This document shows, piece by piece, positions 8,790-55,873 of a stretch of DNA of 55,873 nucleotides. The notes beneath the pieces are model-generated. The model did no database searches. It worked only from the letters and a program-made list of their open reading frames with translations, and was not told where the DNA came from. The DNA comes from a virus: positions 1-55,873 of IMG/VR virus record IMGVR_UViG_3300028809_000018; one strand, given 5' to 3'. Position 1 is the first letter of the stretch, and every line of letters starts with the position of its first letter. A program made the position numbers and the translations under genes.

Positions 8790-9635
8790 CTAGGCATCAA
8801 CCTCTTCGAGCTTAGCAGCGCGGTTCTTCTTGCGCCGCCCCTGGTACATCGGCAGTTCCTTGTTTTCGCGCTGGTTCTTGTTGTAGATCGGCACCAGCGC
8901 GACGTTGATGATCGACCGGAGCATCGGGCCGGGGTTGGCCACCGAGCGGTGGTAGACCCGAGCCTTCTCCAGGATGGTTTCCAGGCCGCCTTCGAACGCC
9001 GCCAGGCGCGTGGTGAACGCCTTGTCGTCGAACTTGCCCGGCCCCTCGCCGTCGTTGTCGTAGTGGTAGATCATCTCGGCGATCGCGTTGATGATCCGGT
9101 GATCGGCCGAGTTGGCGTCCAACGTCCACGCCCGGTCGATGATGGTGAGCGTGCGCTCGAAGGTCCGGAAGCCGTCGGGGCGGTTGACGATCTTCTGCGC
9201 GGTCGACACGGCGTGGAAGGACTTGCCGATCTCCAGGCCGAACGACTCGACGATGGCGTTGATCCGGACCGCGTCCTCCTGGCCCTCGTGCACGAGCATG
9301 CGGAAGTTGTCCGCGTTCGGCACGGTGGTCCGGGTGTTGTACCGACGGAACATCTCCGCCTCTTCGGCCAGCGTCAGACCGGTGTAGACGAGTGCGGTCA
9401 GCTCGGTGGGTGCGTCGCGCACCAGCTTGACCACCTCGGAACGGTGCCAGCCGTCGAGCGCGATGGTCTGGCCGTTGGCCCGCTGACTCATAATGAGCAC
9501 ACCGAGCATCGACTCATCGAATTCGGCGACCATCTTGTTGATGCGGTTGGTGTTCAGCCGGCTGCGCTGCACCCGGTTGTCGATGACGATGTCGGAGACT
9601 TTAATCTTCTTGATCGCCGGCTTGGTCTTGGCCAT
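8790..9635 (-). CDS. ParB/Srx-like domain protein 1
   Basis: 281 residues. The N-terminus has the ParB/sulfiredoxin-type pattern: IKVSDIVIDNRVQR near residue 10, ALDGWHR near 60 and AEEAEMFRRYNTRTT near 90. Such domains in phages can bind DNA, hydrolyse nucleotides or act as nucleases or transcription modulators; the family alone does not decide. The C-terminal half is helical and ends in a basic YQGRRKKNRAAK tail. The start has a perfect AAGGAGAG ribosome binding site. It overlaps the second ParB-like gene by 35 bp; the two are paralogous in domain type but not closely similar. Confidence 0.7.
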   Translation of the reverse strand: MAKTKPAIKKIKVSDIVIDNRVQRSRLNTNRINKMVAEFDESMLGVLIMSQRANGQTIALDGWHRSEVVKLVRDAPTELTALVYTGLTLAEEAEMFRRYNTRTTVPNADNFRMLVHEGQEDAVRINAIVESFGLEIGKSFHAVSTAQKIVNRPDGFRTFERTLTIIDRAWTLDANSADHRIINAIAEMIYHYDNDGEGPGKFDDKAFTTRLAAFEGGLETILEKARVYHRSVANPGPMLRSIINVALVPIYNKNQRENKELPMYQGRRKKNRAAKLEEVDA

Positions 9636-10524
9636 TCTTTCTCTCCTTCAGCCGTGTGAGCTGTACGTTGATTCTGCGGATCGGTGCGGTGATTTTGGTG
9701 ATTTCCTTTTGCCATTTTTCGATCTCCTCCAACGCGTGTTCGGGGGAGATCGCCGCGGCCGTTGGCAATGCGGCCACGATTCCTTGCATCAGGTTCAGCG
9801 ATCGGTTGATCGCCTTGGCCTGCGCCCTGATCGACTGCGAGCCGGCGGGAGGGCGCGGCTTGTCCGCTTCCCGCCTGGCCGCCCGATCCGGGTCGATCAT
9901 GTAGAGGACTTCGTCCGCCAAGCGGTACGGGTATTTTCCGGTCCCGTCGTACTTCTCCAACTCAGCGATGATCAGAGCTACGTTTTCGTGCTCGCTCAGA
10001 AAACGCTGCTCATGGATGCGGTGCATGACCCGCGAGAGGGCCAAAGTGGCTCCCATCGGGATGCCTTCGATCTCCGCCAGGAACACCGCAGGCGTATGCG
10101 GTCCGCGGTACGCCAAGGCGCCGTTGGGCCTGCCTTTCAGGGTTCCCCGCTTGCGGGCATTCGCCCGCCCATAGTTCCGGGACCGGTCGCCCAGAAGAAC
10201 CAACAGTTCGCCCAGATCCATGAACTTTTTCTGCTTGAAGTCTGCCGTCTTGTGCCGCTGCGCGACCTCCTGAAACAGCTTGGCGGTTGTGGGCCAGTCG
10301 TCGGTGGAGATCGCCCAAACTGTCGTCGCGTGCATCCGCTTCAGCGCCTCAACTCGACGCGCGCCGTCGAGGATGAGGTAGCTCCCATCGAGGATGACTG
10401 GGGCCTCTTGCCCGTTTTTCCTGATGGACTGGATGAGCGGCTTCAGGTCCCCCACATCCGAGCGGAAGGCGTAGACGGGGTTGGCGTTGAGAACGTCCTT
10501 CAGGGGGACATTGCCTCCGGCCAC
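9601..10524 (-). CDS. ParB-like domain protein 2
   Basis: 307 residues from the GTG at 10524, which has GAGAGGAG five bases upstream; a TTG five codons earlier is less likely. The N-terminal ~110 residues show the ParB-like NANPVYAFRSDVGDLKPLIQSI...ILDGARRVEAL arrangement. The middle carries basic stretches (RKRGTLKGRPN) and the C-terminus is a long helical, probably coiled-coil region. It is expressed with ParB-like 1, whose start lies inside its 3' end. Its DNA target is unknown; the GTCGG arrays near 50 kb are one candidate worth testing. Confidence 0.65.
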   Translation of the reverse strand: MAGGNVPLKDVLNANPVYAFRSDVGDLKPLIQSIRKNGQEAPVILDGSYLILDGARRVEALKRMHATTVWAISTDDWPTTAKLFQEVAQRHKTADFKQKKFMDLGELLVLLGDRSRNYGRANARKRGTLKGRPNGALAYRGPHTPAVFLAEIEGIPMGATLALSRVMHRIHEQRFLSEHENVALIIAELEKYDGTGKYPYRLADEVLYMIDPDRAARREADKPRPPAGSQSIRAQAKAINRSLNLMQGIVAALPTAAAISPEHALEEIEKWQKEITKITAPIRRINVQLTRLKERKNGQDQAGDQED

Positions 10525-49629: not shown

Positions 49630-50240
49630 GTCGGGTCGGCCAGACATGGGTCGTCGAGACTGGTGAGGTCCGAGGGGGGTAGTCGGGCTGGGGTGGCGTG
49701 GGATGAAGCTGTGTTGACGCGTCAGAACGGAGCGTAACGAACGGATCTGTGATGTCGGGCATGGTCGGGTCTGGGTAGCAGGGATCAGTCGGGGGGGCCA
49801 GGAGTGGCAGGGTGAGTCGGCGGTAGGCGTGGCGATGCGGCGTCGCGTGATGAGATGTCGGAGCGTGTTGGGGGGAAACGTGTTGTCGGAATGGGTCGGC
49901 GAGAACACGGCTCGGGCTGGCTGGTCGGAGGGATGAGGGATGAGCGGATCAGTCGGCGTGACGTGGTCTGTGCTGGCCCGCAGAGGGTAGTCGGAACAGG
50001 GACGTGCTGCGCGGATCGGGCTCGAATTGTCGGGTTGGCAAGTGCGGGGCGAGTCGGCCAGTCGGATTGAGGCGAGGCGCCGTGGATTGTCGGTATGGGG
50101 CGCCGTGGATTGTCGGACTGGAATGGGTTGTCGGGCGTGAAGGGTGCCGGTCAGGCAAGTCGGGAGTGGAAGGGGAGGGCCGGGGTAGTCGGGTCGAGAT
50201 GAGTCGAGCGGGGAGGGCCAGTCGGCGTGGGGTCGGGTTG
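49630..50240. repeat. Strand-biased GTCGG word array, block 1
   Basis: About 23 plus-strand GTCGG words, often as (T/C/A)(A/T)GTCGG, at irregular 6-40 bp spacing in about 610 bp, for example 49682, 49788, 49816, 49990, 50029, 50089, 50112, 50130, 50159 and 50188. The complement CCGAC is nearly absent on this strand. The leftward RNA would be C-rich and G-poor. No convincing gene or ribosome binding site. Possible roles: protein-binding array, origin, or Rho-utilisation-like leader. Confidence 0.7.
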
Positions 50241-50250
50241 ACATGTCGAA

Positions 50251-50274
50251 GGGGGCCAGCCTAAGCCGGCCCCC
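50251..50274 (-). terminator. Hairpin after gene 50283-51086
   Basis: GGGGGCC and GGCCCCC pair, with inner GC/GC pairs, eight bases beyond the stop of the leftward gene. There is no U-tract. It separates that gene from the GTCGG tract. Confidence 0.65.
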
Positions 50275-50282
50275 GTGACGAA

Positions 50283-51086
50283 TCAGGAAACGCGATCCCA
50301 GCGGGTCACGGTGTAGCGGCCATACGTCTGCGAACGGCTGGCCCCCAGGCCCTGCTGCTCGCCGCCCACCCAGATCTGCGCCCACTGCTTCTCGGTGAAG
50401 TCGTAATCGCTGATCACGGTGAACTTGATGACAGCCCGCTGCACCATCTCCTGGTACTGGATGGCCGAACCGAACCGGGTGTTGACGAAGTGCTGGTTCA
50501 CCTTGTCCGGCGAGGTGACGGGCGAACCGTCCTCGCGCCACAGGTCGAGGTGATCCTCGACCACCATGACGTGCTCGGCCATGAAGTTGAGTAGGCCCTT
50601 GTTTGTCTTGCCCCATCCGCGCCCGTCGAGCCGGCCCGCGGCGACGGCAACGCTGGCTGCCTCCTTCAGCGCCGCCTTGAGCTGGCGGCCCTCGATGTAG
50701 AGCTGGTGGGCGTCCGGCTTCGAGCAGATCGGGCCGTCACCGAGGCAGTCCTTGCAGCGCGTCCGGTAGAACCCGTTGAGGTTCTGGGTGGCGGCCAGCT
50801 CGGCGGTCGCCTCCTCCTTCGTGATGCCGCGCTTTTCGACGATCTCCAGCACCGCGCGCTGGATTTGCTGCTCCTTGTCGATGCCGAGCTTGGTGCGCAG
50901 CCAACCCTCGACCACGCGCGGGTCGGAGGGCACGCCGCCGAGGATCTGCTTGAGGAACAGCTCACCTTCGAATCGGTGCGACCACGCCTCGGCCGCCTCG
51001 CTGGCGAACACGGACGGGCGCGGGGGGAGGATTTCGTGCAGGCTGACGCCCGCGAGGTCGGGTGTGATGACGTCGGTCTTGGGCAT
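50283..51086 (-). CDS. Hypothetical protein between GTCGG arrays
   Basis: 267 residues. Helical N-terminal half (SHRFEGELFLKQILGG; LGIDKEQQIQRAVLEIVEKRGITKEEATAELAATQNLNGFYRTRCKDCLGDGPIC), with a CxxC...C cluster near 120-130 that may bind metal, then an alpha/beta region (QYQEMVQRAVIKFTVISDYDFTEKQWAQIW). A strong AAGGAGAG ribosome binding site. It is flanked on both sides by GTCGG arrays, so it may bind or depend on them. Not recognised. Confidence 0.65.
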   Translation of the reverse strand: MPKTDVITPDLAGVSLHEILPPRPSVFASEAAEAWSHRFEGELFLKQILGGVPSDPRVVEGWLRTKLGIDKEQQIQRAVLEIVEKRGITKEEATAELAATQNLNGFYRTRCKDCLGDGPICSKPDAHQLYIEGRQLKAALKEAASVAVAAGRLDGRGWGKTNKGLLNFMAEHVMVVEDHLDLWREDGSPVTSPDKVNQHFVNTRFGSAIQYQEMVQRAVIKFTVISDYDFTEKQWAQIWVGGEQQGLGASRSQTYGRYTVTRWDRVS

Positions 51087-51107
51087 TGCTTCTCTCCTTT
51101 GTGGAAT

Positions 51108-51460
51108 GTCGGATCAGTGGTGGCCCGATACGGGTTGTCGGTTAGATCGGGATGGGATAGTCGGCGTCGGGTCGAAGTGCAGTGTCGAGGCGGATTGAGC
51201 AGGAGGGACTTGTCGGTGCCGGGCCGCGTGGCGGTGGGTGGGCCAGTCGGGTTGATGTGGGGGGAACTGGCAAGGAACGTCGGATGGGGCTCGACGGGGC
51301 TGGTGGTGCGGTGGGTGGTCAACAGGCAAGGAATGTCAGGGACCGCATAGTCAAGCCGAGCTGAGCAGAGGTGGGTAGGCTGGTCGGTGCCGAGGCGTCC
51401 GGATTAGTCGCTCCGGGCTGAGCGGTGGTGGGTGGCGTTGTCGGAACTGAAGCGCGTCGG
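51108..51460. repeat. Strand-biased GTCGG word array, block 2
   Basis: Ten GTCGG words (51108, 51137, 51160, 51166, 51212, 51246, 51279, 51383, 51440, 51456) plus near variants (TAGTCAA, TAGTCGC, TAGTCGT, ATGTCAG) on the plus strand, with the same orientation and composition as block 1. It lies directly upstream of the start region of 50283-51086. No gene is visible in it. Confidence 0.7.
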
Positions 51461-51751
51461 CTAGTCGTTCTTGATGGCGCTGAAGTACTTCTCCATCCAC
51501 TCGCGGATTGCGCGAGCGGCATCTTCGGGCGTGGACCCGCGGGTGGAGCCCTCCGCGGACAGCATTCGCGCCACACCCGTCTCGTCGAAGGCCCGGATGA
51601 GGCCCGTGAGCGCGTCCAAGCGGATGAGCCGGAGGCGCTCCTCGGTGAGCAGGAGCCGATCGCGGTCCAACGTCTCCACAAGGGACATGCCGTGGTGGCG
51701 TGCCTTCAATGTGGAGGCGTTGAAACGCGAATAGGTGTCGAGGTCGATCAC
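51461..51751 (-). CDS. Helical hypothetical protein
   Basis: 96 residues: MIDLDTYSRFNASTLKARHHG, then long helices (RLRLIRLDALTGLIRAFDE; PEDAARAIREWMEKYFSAI). Charged and soluble. The ATG overlaps the preceding stop (ATGA). No family was recognised. Last gene before array block 2. Confidence 0.6.
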   Translation of the reverse strand: MIDLDTYSRFNASTLKARHHGMSLVETLDRDRLLLTEERLRLIRLDALTGLIRAFDETGVARMLSAEGSTRGSTPEDAARAIREWMEKYFSAIKND

Positions 51752-52221
51752 GTGAACTTGATGCCCGTCTCGCGGGTGATGATCTCTTTGAAACGGTCGA
51801 AGTCTTCGACGTAATCGTCCGCCTCATCGCTCCAGACCGAGCCGGCGAGGTGATGGAAGAGCGCCTCGGCTTGCTTCTTGTTCAGCCCGAGCAGCTCCCT
51901 GGCCATGTCCGAGTACGGGTAGTACCACTTCTCGTTGCCGTCGAGGTCCACGCTGATCACGTACGGATTGCCCATCGACCACGCCCGTCCGGTTCCCTCG
52001 CGCTCGTCCTGCGCCCGCATCTCGCGGATCTTCTGGCGCCCGGCCGCGGTCGGCTTGCCCGACCCGTCAACCAGATCGGACATGAACACGGCCCAGCCGG
52101 CGAAACAGAACCGGGTGTTGCAGTTGTGCTGCACCCAGTCTTTCTGGCTCCAGTGCTGGGGCGTGTCTTCGATCTGCGCGACGATGAGCCGGATCAGCTC
52201 CTCGTTGAGTGCCGTCTTCAT
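51748..52221 (-). CDS. FCFAGWA-family protein 1
   Basis: 157 residues. Pattern: N-terminal helix (LNEELIRLIVAQIEDTPQHWSQKDWV), then CNTRFCFAGWAVFMSDL, a variable region, and ELLGLNKKQAEALFHHLAG. I recognise this C-x-AGWA...LLGL...QA..LF plan from many actinobacterial and phage hypotheticals. It is paralogous to the next gene. Function unknown; the Cys pair and C-terminal helices suggest a small binding module. Confidence 0.7.
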   Translation of the reverse strand: MKTALNEELIRLIVAQIEDTPQHWSQKDWVQHNCNTRFCFAGWAVFMSDLVDGSGKPTAAGRQKIREMRAQDEREGTGRAWSMGNPYVISVDLDGNEKWYYPYSDMARELLGLNKKQAEALFHHLAGSVWSDEADDYVEDFDRFKEIITRETGIKFT

Positions 52222-52856
52222 GACTGGGCCACCTTCATCATCCGGTCCATGTAGTCGGCGTTGATGAGCTGTGAGGTCTGCACCCGGCCGTCGCCACCGT
52301 GGGTGAGCTTCTCGTGCTCCGCCCAGTAGACGATCAGCGAGTCGTGATCGTCCGCGGTGCCGCCGACCTCCTGGATGGGGCCGCAGTCAGAGCAGTTGAG
52401 CGTCCACGCGATCGTCTGCATCCCCCGCGTCTTGACGTCGAGCTTGCCGTCAGGGAATGACAGGCCGGTCATGCGCTTCAGATGCCGCTTGTACGAGTCC
52501 CAGGTGCCGTCGCCGACCCAGCCGGAGAACAGGACGCTGGCCTGATCCCCGGTGAAGCCGAGCAGGTCTTCCGCGACCTCGCTCCACGGGAACGCGTCGT
52601 CGGTTTCGTCGGCGATGTTGACGATGTCCAGCCCCTCCGGCGCGACGTTGGCGGCGTGCTGGATGGCGACGATGTTGGGGCGCCCCTTCTCGTCCAGGTA
52701 ATCGGACAGGTGTAGCGCCCAGCCGGCGAAACAGAACTGGGTGGGGCACGAGTCGCCCCCCTTGCGGGACCACACCTCCTGATCCCACTGGCCGGGGCTC
52801 ATCTCGATCGCCTCGACGATCTGGCGGATGAGCGGGACATTCAGTTCTTCGGCCAT
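52218..52856 (-). CDS. FCFAGWA-family protein 2
   Basis: 212 residues from the ATG at 52856 (GAGAGAAGGA). Same plan as protein 1: PLIRQIVEAIEMSPGQWDQEVW, CPTQFCFAGWALHLSDYL, DLLGFTGDQASVLFSGW. It adds a C-terminal domain (TIAWTLNCSDCGPIQEVGGTADDHDSLIVYWAEHEK) with a CxxC that looks like a small zinc ribbon. Expressed from the promoter at 52991-53019 through a leader with a hairpin. Confidence 0.7.
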   Translation of the reverse strand: MAEELNVPLIRQIVEAIEMSPGQWDQEVWSRKGGDSCPTQFCFAGWALHLSDYLDEKGRPNIVAIQHAANVAPEGLDIVNIADETDDAFPWSEVAEDLLGFTGDQASVLFSGWVGDGTWDSYKRHLKRMTGLSFPDGKLDVKTRGMQTIAWTLNCSDCGPIQEVGGTADDHDSLIVYWAEHEKLTHGGDGRVQTSQLINADYMDRMMKVAQS

Positions 52857-53445: not shown

Positions 53446-53847
53446 TCAGAGCTGTCGTTCGATCAACACAGCGAGCCGACCGAACGGGATCTGGTAGCGA
53501 TCGTTGAGGAGGGTGAGGGAGAACTTCTCCGAAAGCTCGCCCGGCTCGTGCTGGGCCTTGATCTCGGGGTTGATGGACAGCAGGCCCGCCCACTTGCGTA
53601 CCGCGTGGGGCAGGGTGCACGCAGACGAGTCGGCGGGGTTGTCGACGGCTACGTAACCGGTGACGCCCGCGGTCGGGTAGGGCGAGCGTTTGACGATGCC
53701 CTGCTCGGCGCCCAACTCGGTCAGCACACCAAGGCAGCAGAACACCTGAAGTCCTGAATCCTCAACGCGATTGAGGTACGCCCGCCCCTGCGGGAACTTG
53801 CCCGACATGAGCCGGCGCACCCACTCATCGCGTATGTGCGGATTCAC
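53446..53847 (-). CDS. CCLGVLC-family paralog 5
   Basis: 133 residues, last gene of the right-end operon. Plan shared by all five: WVRRLMSGKFPQGRAYL, then FCCLGVLTELG, a variable beta region, LPHAVRKWAGL and a final SLTLLNDRYQIPFGRLAVLIERQL. Here the second Cys of the core (CCLGVLC) is replaced by T, so it is the most diverged copy. GTG start overlapping the preceding stop. Function unknown. Confidence 0.7.
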   Translation of the reverse strand: MNPHIRDEWVRRLMSGKFPQGRAYLNRVEDSGLQVFCCLGVLTELGAEQGIVKRSPYPTAGVTGYVAVDNPADSSACTLPHAVRKWAGLLSINPEIKAQHEPGELSEKFSLTLLNDRYQIPFGRLAVLIERQL

Positions 53848-54296
53848 AGACCGACCTCAATCAGACCAGCGATCTGGTTGAAGTCGAGTTTCAGGTCATC
53901 GTTGAGGTTGGACAGCGACCGGTTGTACTCCTGCCCGTCGCCCAGGTCGTGGGCGTCGGTGCACATCTCATCGCACTCTTCGTCGCACGTATGCGTGTAG
54001 GTGATGTTCGGGTCGGCGGACTCCAGGCCCGCCCACTGCTGCACCTGGGGCGGCAAGGCGCCCGTCTCGCTACCCGAGCCGTAGATCATGCACGAGTCGC
54101 TGCCCGCATACACGCGCTTGCCGATGATGCCGTCGGCGACGGCGATCTCACACAGCACGCCAAGGCAGCAGTGACCCACAACCTCTTTCAGGCTGCCATC
54201 GTCATGTCGGGTAATCGCCGACAAGTAGCCTTCAGCCTGCTTGTACTCACCGGAGCGCAGGGCCGCGACCCAGCGCTCTTTGATGTCCTGCTTCAT
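53844..54296 (-). CDS. CCLGVLC-family paralog 4
   Basis: 150 residues: WVAALRSGEYKQAEGYL, CCLGVLCEIAVADGI, LPPQVQQWAGLES and SLSNLNDDLKLDFNQIAGLIEVGL. An insertion before the last block carries four extra acidic/Cys residues (CDEECDEMC), probably an added metal site absent in the sisters. Coupled by 4-nt overlaps. Confidence 0.75.
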   Translation of the reverse strand: MKQDIKERWVAALRSGEYKQAEGYLSAITRHDDGSLKEVVGHCCLGVLCEIAVADGIIGKRVYAGSDSCMIYGSGSETGALPPQVQQWAGLESADPNITYTHTCDEECDEMCTDAHDLGDGQEYNRSLSNLNDDLKLDFNQIAGLIEVGL

Positions 54297-54736
54297 GCTG
54301 CCGGAACCTCCTGAAGGTGGTCGCGCTCGATGACGTCGGCGATCTGGGCGAACGCGTAGCCCGCGGAATCGTTGAGGTCGACGAAGCTGGCGGGGTAGTC
54401 GTCGCCATCCTCGTCTGCGTAAACCTCGGACGTGATCTGCGGGTCAACAACACTGCCCGGCTGCCACTCCAGGCCCGCCCACTCCCGAACGGCGAGGGGC
54501 AGGGACGTGCACGAGGAGTCGTCGGAAGCGTCCACGGTCTGGTAGTAGGTGTCCTCGTCGCCGTCGTACCACTTCCGCTCGACGATGCCGTCGGCGACAG
54601 CGATCTCGCACAGCACGCCGAGACAGCAGAACTTCGTCTTGCCGTCCTCGCCCTTGCGCGCGAGACGTTCCTTGCCCTGCTCGTAGTCGCCGGAGCGCAG
54701 GGCATCCACCCAGCGTTGGGCGATGTCGCGGTTCAT
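54293..54736 (-). CDS. CCLGVLC-family paralog 3
   Basis: 147 residues: WVDALRSGDYEQGKERL, FCCLGVLCEIAVADGIV, LPLAVREWAGLEW, SFVDLNDSAGYAFAQIADVIERDHL. Strongly acidic. Its closest sisters are the genes on either side, and identical words such as CCLGVLCEIAVADGI indicate recent duplication. Confidence 0.75.
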   Translation of the reverse strand: MNRDIAQRWVDALRSGDYEQGKERLARKGEDGKTKFCCLGVLCEIAVADGIVERKWYDGDEDTYYQTVDASDDSSCTSLPLAVREWAGLEWQPGSVVDPQITSEVYADEDGDDYPASFVDLNDSAGYAFAQIADVIERDHLQEVPAA

Positions 54737-55161
54737 GCTGCCGCCTCCTGCGGGATGAGCTGTTCTTCGATGACGGTGGCGATCTGGTCGAAGTTGTAGT
54801 TGCGCTCATCGTTGAGCGCGGCCATGGTTGTTCTCATCTGCTGCATCCCGCCAACGGCCGGGACGGAGACGCGCGGGTTGCTGTACTCCAGGCCCGCCCA
54901 CTTCATGACCGCCTCGGGCAGGTAGTTGTAGCCCACGGTGTTGTCATCGACGCCCCTATACCGGCGGGCGAGTGACACGCCGTTGTTGTCCTCCTCCGCG
55001 GTCACGATGCCGTCCTTGAGCGCAATCTCGCACAGCACCCCGAGGCAGCAATGGCTCGCGGGCGTGCCATCCGCGTTGAGGCGTGTCAGGCGCCCCTGAC
55101 CCTGCTTGTAGTCGCCGGAGCGCAGGGCGCGGACCCAGCGCTCGCCGATGTCGCGGTTCAC
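54733..55161 (-). CDS. CCLGVLC-family paralog 2
   Basis: 142 residues from the GTG at 55161, which overlaps the preceding stop (GTGA) and aligns with the sister starts (NRDIGERWVRALRSGDYKQGQGRL). Then CCLGVLCEIALKDGIV, LPEAVMKWAGLEYSNP, MAALNDERNYNFDQIATVIEEQL. Upstream in-frame codons overlap paralog 1 and are not needed. Confidence 0.75.
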   Translation of the reverse strand: MNRDIGERWVRALRSGDYKQGQGRLTRLNADGTPASHCCLGVLCEIALKDGIVTAEEDNNGVSLARRYRGVDDNTVGYNYLPEAVMKWAGLEYSNPRVSVPAVGGMQQMRTTMAALNDERNYNFDQIATVIEEQLIPQEAAA

Positions 55162-55700
55162 AGGTACTTCTCGATCAGGTCGGCGATGAACGCGAACGAG
55201 AATCCGCGGTCGTTGAGCGACGCCAGCGTCGTCCATTCGGTGGGTTTGTCGTTGGCGCCGTGACGCGGCGCGCTCGGGTTGGCCGCCTGGTGGGCGTGGA
55301 CCGCGGAGATCGGGATGATCGGGTCCCTCGTGGGCAGCTTCGCCCAGTCCTTGAACGGGATTGGGGGCATCGAGCGGTCATTGGCGCCGCCGGGGCCGGT
55401 GAAGGTGATGACGTCGCTGCCTCCGCGCTGCTCGGCAGAGAGGCCGGGGACCTTGTTGCGTACGGCAATGTCGCACAGCACGCCGAGGCAGCAGTACTGC
55501 TTCTCGCCGCTCTTGGCGACCTTCGCGAGCTTGCCTTGGCCCTGCTTGTACTCGCCGGAGCGCAGGGCGCTCAGCCATTGCGCCTTGATGCCCGGCTCCA
55601 TGCGGCCGATGCGGGCGCGAGCGTCGCCGGGGCTCAGATACGACGCGATCGATTCGATCGATTCGACGTTCGATGGGTAGACGAAGGTGTCGGTAGCCAT
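55158..55700 (-). CDS. CCLGVLC-family paralog 1
   Basis: 180 residues from the ATG at 55700 with AAGGAGAG upstream; first gene of the operon driven by the right terminal repeat. It has a unique ~45-residue N-terminal extension before WLSALRSGEYKQGQGKL, then YCCLGVLCDIAVRNKV, IPFKDWAKLP and LASLNDRGFSFAFIADLIEKYL. Early position and duplication suggest host-takeover or anti-defence roles, which is inference only. Confidence 0.75.
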   Translation of the reverse strand: MATDTFVYPSNVESIESIASYLSPGDARARIGRMEPGIKAQWLSALRSGEYKQGQGKLAKVAKSGEKQYCCLGVLCDIAVRNKVPGLSAEQRGGSDVITFTGPGGANDRSMPPIPFKDWAKLPTRDPIIPISAVHAHQAANPSAPRHGANDKPTEWTTLASLNDRGFSFAFIADLIEKYL

Positions 55701-55733
55701 GATCAGCTTCTCTCCTTGAAGACTGGCTGAGGG

Positions 55734-55741
55734 GGATATCC
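55734..55741. promoter_or_regulatory. GGATATCC site in right leader
   Basis: A perfect 8-bp palindrome containing the ATATCC core of the operator family, in the 5' leader between the right-end promoter and the first gene. It is a possible second, partial operator that the left end lacks. Confidence 0.4.
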
Positions 55742-55746
55742 ACCTC

Positions 55747-55873
55747 ACTCACCACACCATCTTCACACCCGGATATACCCCTGTCAACCTCCTCTCATGA
55801 TCAACATAAAGCAAATGATCATGCCCCTGACCTGCTATCTTTCATTTTTTCTTTCTTTTAGTTCTGAGTATTC
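55747..55873. repeat. Right terminal inverted repeat, 127 bp
   Basis: Perfect inverted copy of bases 1-127. Its promoter points leftward into the operon of five paralogs that starts at 55700. The first transcribed sequence after the repeat differs from the left end: on the right there is a 5' leader with a ribosome binding site, whereas on the left translation can begin inside the repeat. Confidence 0.95.
55759..55787 (-). promoter_or_regulatory. Right-end promoter in terminal repeat
   Basis: Identical copy of the left-end promoter: -35 at 55782-55787 and -10 at 55759-55764 on the minus strand, with the same operator core in the spacer. It drives the leftward operon beginning at 55700. A further GGATATCC palindrome lies at 55734-55741 in the leader. 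Confidence 0.75.

What the first reader, a model, noticed from the sequence alone, without database searches (positions are those of the whole stretch)
49630..51460. Two strand-specific GTCGG arrays flanking one gene
About 33 GTCGG words lie in two gene-free tracts (49630-50240 and 51108-51460), all on one strand and mostly preceded by AG or TG. By composition one or two would be expected. Spacing is irregular, so it is neither a CRISPR nor a tandem repeat. The leftward RNA is C-rich and G-poor, like Rho-utilisation sites; alternatively it is a landing array for a DNA-binding protein (two ParB-like proteins are encoded) or a replication origin. I know no described phage element of this form.
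Basis: partly seen in the sequence, partly recalled or inferred. Interest (0 to 1): 0.8.

Follow-up and report, generated by a model that had tools for sequence, protein, structure and literature searches.

The report
C-rich RNA-guide array, VIPR-like phage system
The repeated GTCGG words mark the starts of short coded RNA segments around a CRISPR-related (RAMP) phage gene, and relatives of these segments spell out key genes of rival phages, so this looks like a weapon between phages: a C-rich form of the very recently described VIPR systems.

Summary
In detail: 33 GTCGG words on one strand in two tracts, none reversed. It is a fragment of a larger pattern. Read along the neighbouring genes (minus strand), the tracts are C-rich ladders of units CGAC-NNN-(YC-NNN)m. 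Unit lengths are quantised at 8+5m, so the "irregular" spacing is regular in steps of five. The gene between them (50283-51086) is a RAMP-fold protein: its model matches Cas7/Csm3 structures, and its profile matches Vipr of phage SUSP1. In IMG/VR, 47 of 61 loci with this gene carry such ladders, against 1 of 67 related loci without it. The closest described system is VIPR (preprint, April 2026), whose guide RNA alternates GGY with NN. Here the scaffold is (c)YC with NN, C-rich instead of G-rich, in densely packed GAC-headed units. Under the published 1-nt-skip rule, 5 of 187 long guides of relatives match other phages perfectly, against about 0.17 expected; other skips of 0-3 give none. Targets are terminase, Vipr itself, tape measure and a methylase, always with the skipped base at the codon wobble position. 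One guide matches the terminase Walker A motif in at least 120 viral contigs. No target was found for this window's own, shorter guides. RNA expression, binding and strand are inferred.

The parts
51103..51460 (-). Upstream guide array: C-rich ladder with 11 GAC-headed units of 1-7 pentamers NNN-YC. It starts directly after the stop codon of gene 51461-51751 and ends at the Shine-Dalgarno region of the RAMP gene.
   Evidence: Sequence; HMM parse; C at the register position 98% in window units; lag-5 autocorrelation of C 0.18.
50283..51086 (-). RAMP-fold (Vipr-like) protein, 267 aa, C-terminal glycine-rich loop GLGASRSQTYGRY; predicted to bind the array RNA.
   Evidence: AlphaFold2 pLDDT 86, pTM 0.81; Foldseek PDB top hits Cas7 of type VII and Csm3, E 1e-7 to 1e-5, probability 1.0; weak PADLOC hits only to RAMPs; hhalign to SUSP1-type Viprs 99.7%, E 2e-26.
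50251..50274 (-). GC-rich hairpin (10-bp stem, 4-nt loop) just after the RAMP stop codon and before the downstream array; terminator, attenuator or processing element (function inferred).
   Evidence: Stretch 50236-50285 folds at -29.1 kcal/mol, z -5.5; hairpins seen by eye at the same place in several relatives.
49632..50250 (-). Downstream guide array: C-rich ladder with about 21 GAC-headed units of 1-7 pentamers.
   Evidence: Sequence; HMM parse; lag-5 autocorrelation of C 0.23; sense RNA unstructured, z +1.9.
51461..51751 (-). Small gene (96 aa) in the position where most relatives carry a conserved accessory gene; not homologous to it.
   Evidence: No Pfam or PHROG hit; the accessory-family HMM finds nothing in the window.

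Best explanation
The locus is a VIPR-like RNA-guided system carried by a tailed phage. The C-rich strand of both tracts is transcribed with the leftward genes (inferred). The RAMP protein 50283-51086 oligomerises on that RNA, one subunit per pentamer, gripping the conserved (c)YC scaffold and presenting two variable bases per pentamer (inferred from the 5-nt register and the fold). Each GAC header begins one guide. The exposed dinucleotides read double-stranded DNA non-contiguously, two bases paired and one skipped, so conserved protein motifs are recognised despite wobble changes (supported here by target matches of relatives' guides). The ribonucleoprotein probably represses essential genes of competing phages or prophages, including rival Vipr genes (by analogy with SUSP1 VIPR).
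For: Ladder grammar in 96 arrays of 54 loci. Ladders near 53 of 61 homologues and in 47 of 61 carrier loci versus 1 of 67 non-carrier loci; 68 of 74 nearby arrays have the C-rich strand in the gene's sense. RAMP fold and homology to Vipr. 1-nt-skip rule: 5 of 187 full-length guides of 8-9 pentamers match perfectly, about 0.17 expected from 300 shuffles, none for skips 0, 2, 3 and one for skip 4. Targets: terminase Walker A VRGPHGLGK, a second terminase, tape measure, C5 DNA methylase IENVPGLL, Vipr KVAEGWLK; skipped base at codon wobble in all. The L130 guide pattern matches at least 120 viral contigs, 120 of 120 encoding VRGPHGLGK in frame. The Vipr-targeting guide spares its owner's gene by a mismatched header-proximal dinucleotide. 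Published mechanism: PMC13142463.
Against: No target was found for the window's own guides, which have at most 7 pentamers and cannot be searched specifically. Four guides of 11-12 pentamers had no exact match in all of IMG/VR, though long units may be two merged guides. RNA strand and expression are inferred: in L164, L165 and L169 some arrays run against the RAMP gene. Seven-pentamer guides show no excess (5 versus 3.8). No structured 3' tail like that of SUSP1 was identified, and the window lacks the accessory gene of its relatives.
Confidence: 0.85

Rival explanations
1. RAMP-protein-coated RNA without guide function: the protein forms a filament on the YC ladder as autoregulation, RNA decoy or packaging, and the NNN positions are simply unconstrained.
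For: Explains register, association with the gene and free N positions. Most guides have no target in the searched sequences.
Against: Does not explain five perfect 8-9 dinucleotide matches only under the published skip rule, their wobble phase, or their location in conserved motifs of essential phage genes.
Confidence: 0.1
2. C-rich Rho-utilisation or untranslated leader tracts controlling transcription termination.
For: C-rich, G-poor, unstructured leftward RNA at gene boundaries.
Against: Rut sites (from general knowledge) need no strict 5-nt register, no CGAC header and no RAMP gene next door; only 1 of 67 related loci lacking the gene has a ladder, in 1.2 Mb.
Confidence: 0.03
3. Landing array for a DNA-binding protein (ParB-like) or a replication origin.
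For: Many copies of a short word in a skewed intergenic tract; a ParB-like protein is encoded at 9601-10524.
Against: The arrays follow the RAMP gene across phages, occur in several intergenic sites of one genome (L151, L154, L155, L170), lack the palindromes of parS-type sites, and have hypervariable content in a fixed register.
Confidence: 0.02

Closest known systems
VIPR systems (Vipr protein + vrRNA), SUSP1 and P. fulva prophage, bioRxiv 2026.04.26.720920 (PMC13142463)
   Same: Phage-borne single-RRM RAMP protein flanked by intergenic RNA of pentameric repeats with conserved scaffold and hypervariable dinucleotides; target matches follow the same 1-nt-skip rule with the skipped base at wobble; some guides aim at rival Vipr genes.
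   Different: SUSP1, LittleE, Trine and Pipp arrays are G-rich YNNGG on the Vipr-sense strand; here the sense strand is C-rich NN(c)YC. Units are headed by GAC and packed head to tail (modal 6-7 pentamers) rather than about 100-nt RNAs of 9-16 repeats with a structured 3' tail. The protein is 210-280 aa rather than about 195. Accessory gene differs. Whether one of the seven published types covers it cannot be told: the supplement was not readable.
Type III / type VII CRISPR effectors (Csm3, Cas7)
   Same: Cas7/Csm3 fold with glycine-rich loop; polymer on a guide RNA implied; periodic interruption of pairing.
   Different: No repeats of CRISPR length, no adaptation or cas genes seen beside it, non-contiguous code, period 5 in the RNA.
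TIGR-Tas (PMC12045711)
   Same: Phage-encoded compact RNA-guided system with an unusual array.
   Different: From general knowledge, Nop-domain protein and box C/D-like RNA; neither was seen here.

Membership tests
VIPR | Small RAMP-fold Vipr protein with glycine-rich loop | tested here: met
   Model and Foldseek; G245, R250 and G255 invariant in 53 homologues; hhalign with SUSP1-type Viprs E 2e-26 over 140 columns.
VIPR | Flanking RNA of pentamers alternating conserved scaffold and hypervariable dinucleotide | tested here: met
   Register C 97%, Y position C/T about 84%, first two N near uniform; 47 of 61 carrier loci.
VIPR | Scaffold consensus GGY (YNNGG) | tested here: not met
   Scaffold is (c)YC on the gene-sense strand; the reverse strand reads GR-N-NN without the Y. 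The paper allows 'a related consensus' without detail in the main text.
VIPR | Non-contiguous recognition with 1-nt skip in dsDNA | tested here: met
   By sequence matching in relatives only: 5 perfect guides versus 0.17 expected, wobble phase in all. Not shown for the window's own guides.
VIPR | Invariant structured 3' tail of the guide RNA | tested here: inconclusive
   Only a hairpin between gene and downstream array was found; the units themselves carry no tail beyond the GAC header.
VIPR | Accessory (vap) gene next to vipr | tested here: inconclusive
   A conserved all-helical protein of about 180 aa adjoins the gene in 42 of 65 loci, 51 with HMM hits, unrelated to any PDB fold; absent from the window.
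VIPR | Guide RNA transcribed and bound by Vipr | not testable with these tools
   Needs small-RNA sequencing and pull-down.
CRISPR-Cas | Direct repeats separated by contiguous spacers | tested here: not met
   Only the 3-4 nt header recurs; unit length varies in steps of 5.
TIGR-Tas | Nop-domain Tas protein | tested here: not met
   The protein has a RAMP fold and no Pfam domain.

The most novel reading that the evidence does not exclude
A distinct, undescribed branch of VIPR with its own RNA scaffold alphabet (C-based NN(c)YC, GAC-headed dense guide arrays, own helical accessory protein), implying that the RAMP-RNA code has been re-lettered between G and C in evolution while the 1-nt-skip DNA rule was kept, and that guides are aimed at universal protein motifs such as the terminase Walker A.
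Probability: 0.5. Interest if true: 0.85.

Novelty: new variant of a known kind. Interest (0 to 1): 0.75.

Why it matters
VIPR is proposed as the ancestor of CRISPR RAMP complexes but is known mainly from G-rich YNNGG guides. A C-rich branch with tens of short guides per phage would show that the protein-RNA register can change its letters while the DNA-reading rule stays. It gives natural guide-scaffold variants for structure work, and predicts a large network of phage-phage targeting among phages of soil bacteria. The guide that reads VRGPHGLGK shows how skipping the wobble base lets one short RNA cover the terminases of very many unrelated phages.

Tried and rejected
Pfam, PHROGs and NCBIfam named nothing for the 267-aa protein; a PDB sequence search found nothing; Rfam found nothing credible (one 19-bit match over the hairpin). 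A single-sequence IMG/VR scan failed and the profile scan succeeded. Reading all three N as paired, or the last two, or skips 0, 2, 3, gave no perfect long matches from header guides; skip 4 gave one. Exact IMG/VR scans of four long guides (11-12 pentamers) gave zero. Window guides: no full match, no self-match. Accessory protein: no PDB fold match and no Pfam family. Protein comparison failed internally, so hhalign was run in the Python box (an earlier run aligned only one column and was discarded). CGAC spacings of 5n (10, 15, 20) were recognised as incidental GAC triplets after YC and handled by the HMM parse.

Full report
OBSERVATION. No other intergenic gap of 90 bases or more in the window contains the word. 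The window is a 55,873-base IMG/VR phage record with terminase, portal, major head, tape measure and D5-type primase genes.

THE PATTERN. Printed on the minus strand, the sense of the flanking genes, the word is CCGAC. Relatives found through the major head protein include five that carry a homologue of the intervening gene. At least four of these have clear CCGAC tracts beside it, and the fifth only three copies upstream. One of them (G007) made the hidden order visible: CCGAC NNN CC NNN YC NNN CC NNN CC NNN. A profile scan gave 61 homologous loci. In 96 deduplicated arrays of 54 loci, distances between successive CGAC peak at 8, 13, 18, 23, 28, 33, 38, 43, 48 and one above each. C stands at offsets 8, 13, 18, 23, 28, 33 in about 80% of all units; the lag-5 autocorrelation of C is 0.173, against 0.000 with s.d. 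0.004 in shuffles. In well-formed units the register C is 97% and the base before it is mostly C or T. The third N is C-biased and the first two N are near uniform, so the pentamer is best written NN(c)YC. Single loci keep the same register, the window at 98%. An HMM parse gives GAC-headed units with a mode of 6-7 pentamers; shuffled arrays give a mode of 1. Thus the irregular spacing is quantised.

ASSOCIATION. Ladders passing a register test occur in 47 of 61 loci with the gene, against 1 of 67 loci of related phages without it. Of 74 arrays within 1.5 kb of the gene, 68 have the C-rich strand in the gene's sense. Even the distant homologue in Microcystis phage Mae-JY09 (31% identity) is followed by a CGAC/YC ladder. 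Arrays also fill other intergenic gaps in the same genomes (L151, L154, L155, L170).

THE PROTEIN. The 267-aa product has no family in Pfam or PHROGs. Its C-terminus, GLGASRSQ-YGRY, is a RAMP-type glycine-rich loop. Weak PADLOC hits are all RAMPs: Csm4, Cmr6, Csm3, type IV Cas7, Cas6. AlphaFold2 on a 53-sequence alignment gives pLDDT 86. Foldseek returns Cas7 of the type VII complex and Csm3 as best hits, E 1e-7 to 1e-5, and among viral models a protein annotated 'Cas system-associated RAMP'.

CLOSEST KNOWN. A literature search found VIPR (PMC13142463): phage RAMP 'Vipr', vrRNAs of YNNGG pentamers, dsDNA recognised by the NN with one skipped base, skip at codon wobble, targets in competing phages. 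I located the SUSP1 locus (KT454805.2) and confirmed its YNNGG tracts on the vipr-sense strand. Mycobacterium phage LittleE and Gordonia phages Trine and Pipp have the same G-rich form. Profile comparison of our family with these Viprs gives 99.7% probability, E 2e-26, 140 columns. So the protein is a Vipr homologue, but the RNA scaffold is C-rich, (c)YC instead of GGY, in packed GAC-headed units. The paper's main text says other types use 'GGY/NN motifs, or a related consensus' and mentions staggered arrays. Its supplement could not be opened, so coverage of this variant is unknown.

TARGETS. I tested which reading of the variable bases finds targets in about 3.7 Mb of related phage DNA (7.4 million positions on both strands, arrays masked). 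For header guides of exactly 8 or 9 pentamers, full-length perfect matches with NN and one skipped base number 5 of 187; 300 shuffles give 0.17 in total. Skips 0, 2 and 3 give none and skip 4 gives one. The rule was fixed beforehand by the publication. Seven-pentamer guides show no excess, so the evidence rests on five guides. They hit: a terminase large subunit Walker A (VRGPHGLGK, in two phages); another terminase; a tape-measure gene; a C5 DNA methylase (IENVPGLL); and the RAMP gene itself at KVAEGWLK in about ten other phages. In all five the skipped base is the third codon position. The owner of the last guide has a mismatched dinucleotide at the header-proximal pentamer in its own RAMP gene. 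Those 120 are not independent evidence for the rule, since they follow from one conserved motif; they show the reach of the guide.

STRAND. C-rich RNA is favoured because arrays mostly lie in the sense of the flanking genes, begin directly at a stop codon (TAG|CCGAC at 51460 in the window) and leave no room for an antisense promoter. The C-rich strand is less structured than shuffles (z +1.9) and the G-rich strand is more structured. In L164 an upstream array is divergent from the gene, with a gap of about 100 bases between them and a hairpin with T-run at its end; in L165 an array follows minus-strand genes. This is inference, not proof.

ACCESSORY GENE. In 42 of 65 loci a conserved protein of about 180 aa adjoins the RAMP gene (51 loci with weak HMM hits), in most separated from it by the array. 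It is predicted all-helical with pLDDT 94.5 and has no PDB fold relative. The window lacks it.

SHOWN AND INFERRED. Shown by computation: grammar, co-occurrence, fold, homology to Vipr, matches of relatives' guides under the 1-nt-skip rule. Inferred: transcription, strand, protein-RNA binding, repression of rivals. For this window no target is known; its guides have at most 7 pentamers, too short to search specifically, and none matches its own genome well.

Noticed in passing
window 53446-55748 (-): Five adjacent paralogous genes (about 130-190 aa) sharing the motif ...RWV.ALRSG.Y.QG...CCLGVLC.IA..., a tandem family at the end of the leftward module.
   Followed up: no
window 51748-52856 (-): Two adjacent paralogues of PHROG 889 (unknown function) just upstream of the array.
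   Followed up: no
L127:4934-5464 and 41 further loci: Conserved all-helical protein of about 180 aa beside the RAMP gene, no Pfam or PDB relative; probable accessory protein of this VIPR-like branch.
   Followed up: partly
L050 (IMGVR_UViG_3300048917_000390): The one related locus with a YC ladder array among those without a detected RAMP gene; it is a 22-kb fragment.
   Followed up: no
L155, L170, L151, L154: Ladder arrays fill several further intergenic gaps, so a single phage may carry more than a hundred guides.
   Followed up: partly
L081 (Microcystis phage Mae-JY09, PP395641.1, 37713-38976): A deposited phage genome carries a homologue and ladder at its very end, annotated only as hypothetical protein.
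   Followed up: partly
L177 versus L178: Loci with 96% identical RAMP genes and about 88% identity around them do not align over about 560 bases of L177 (about 140 of L178) within the array, suggesting fast turnover of guides.
   Followed up: partly
L190 (Actinomadura sp. KC216), array at 1-416: An 11-pentamer guide reads, with wobble skips, like the tyrosine-integrase motif LTPHGLRHT; no exact match in IMG/VR.
   Followed up: partly
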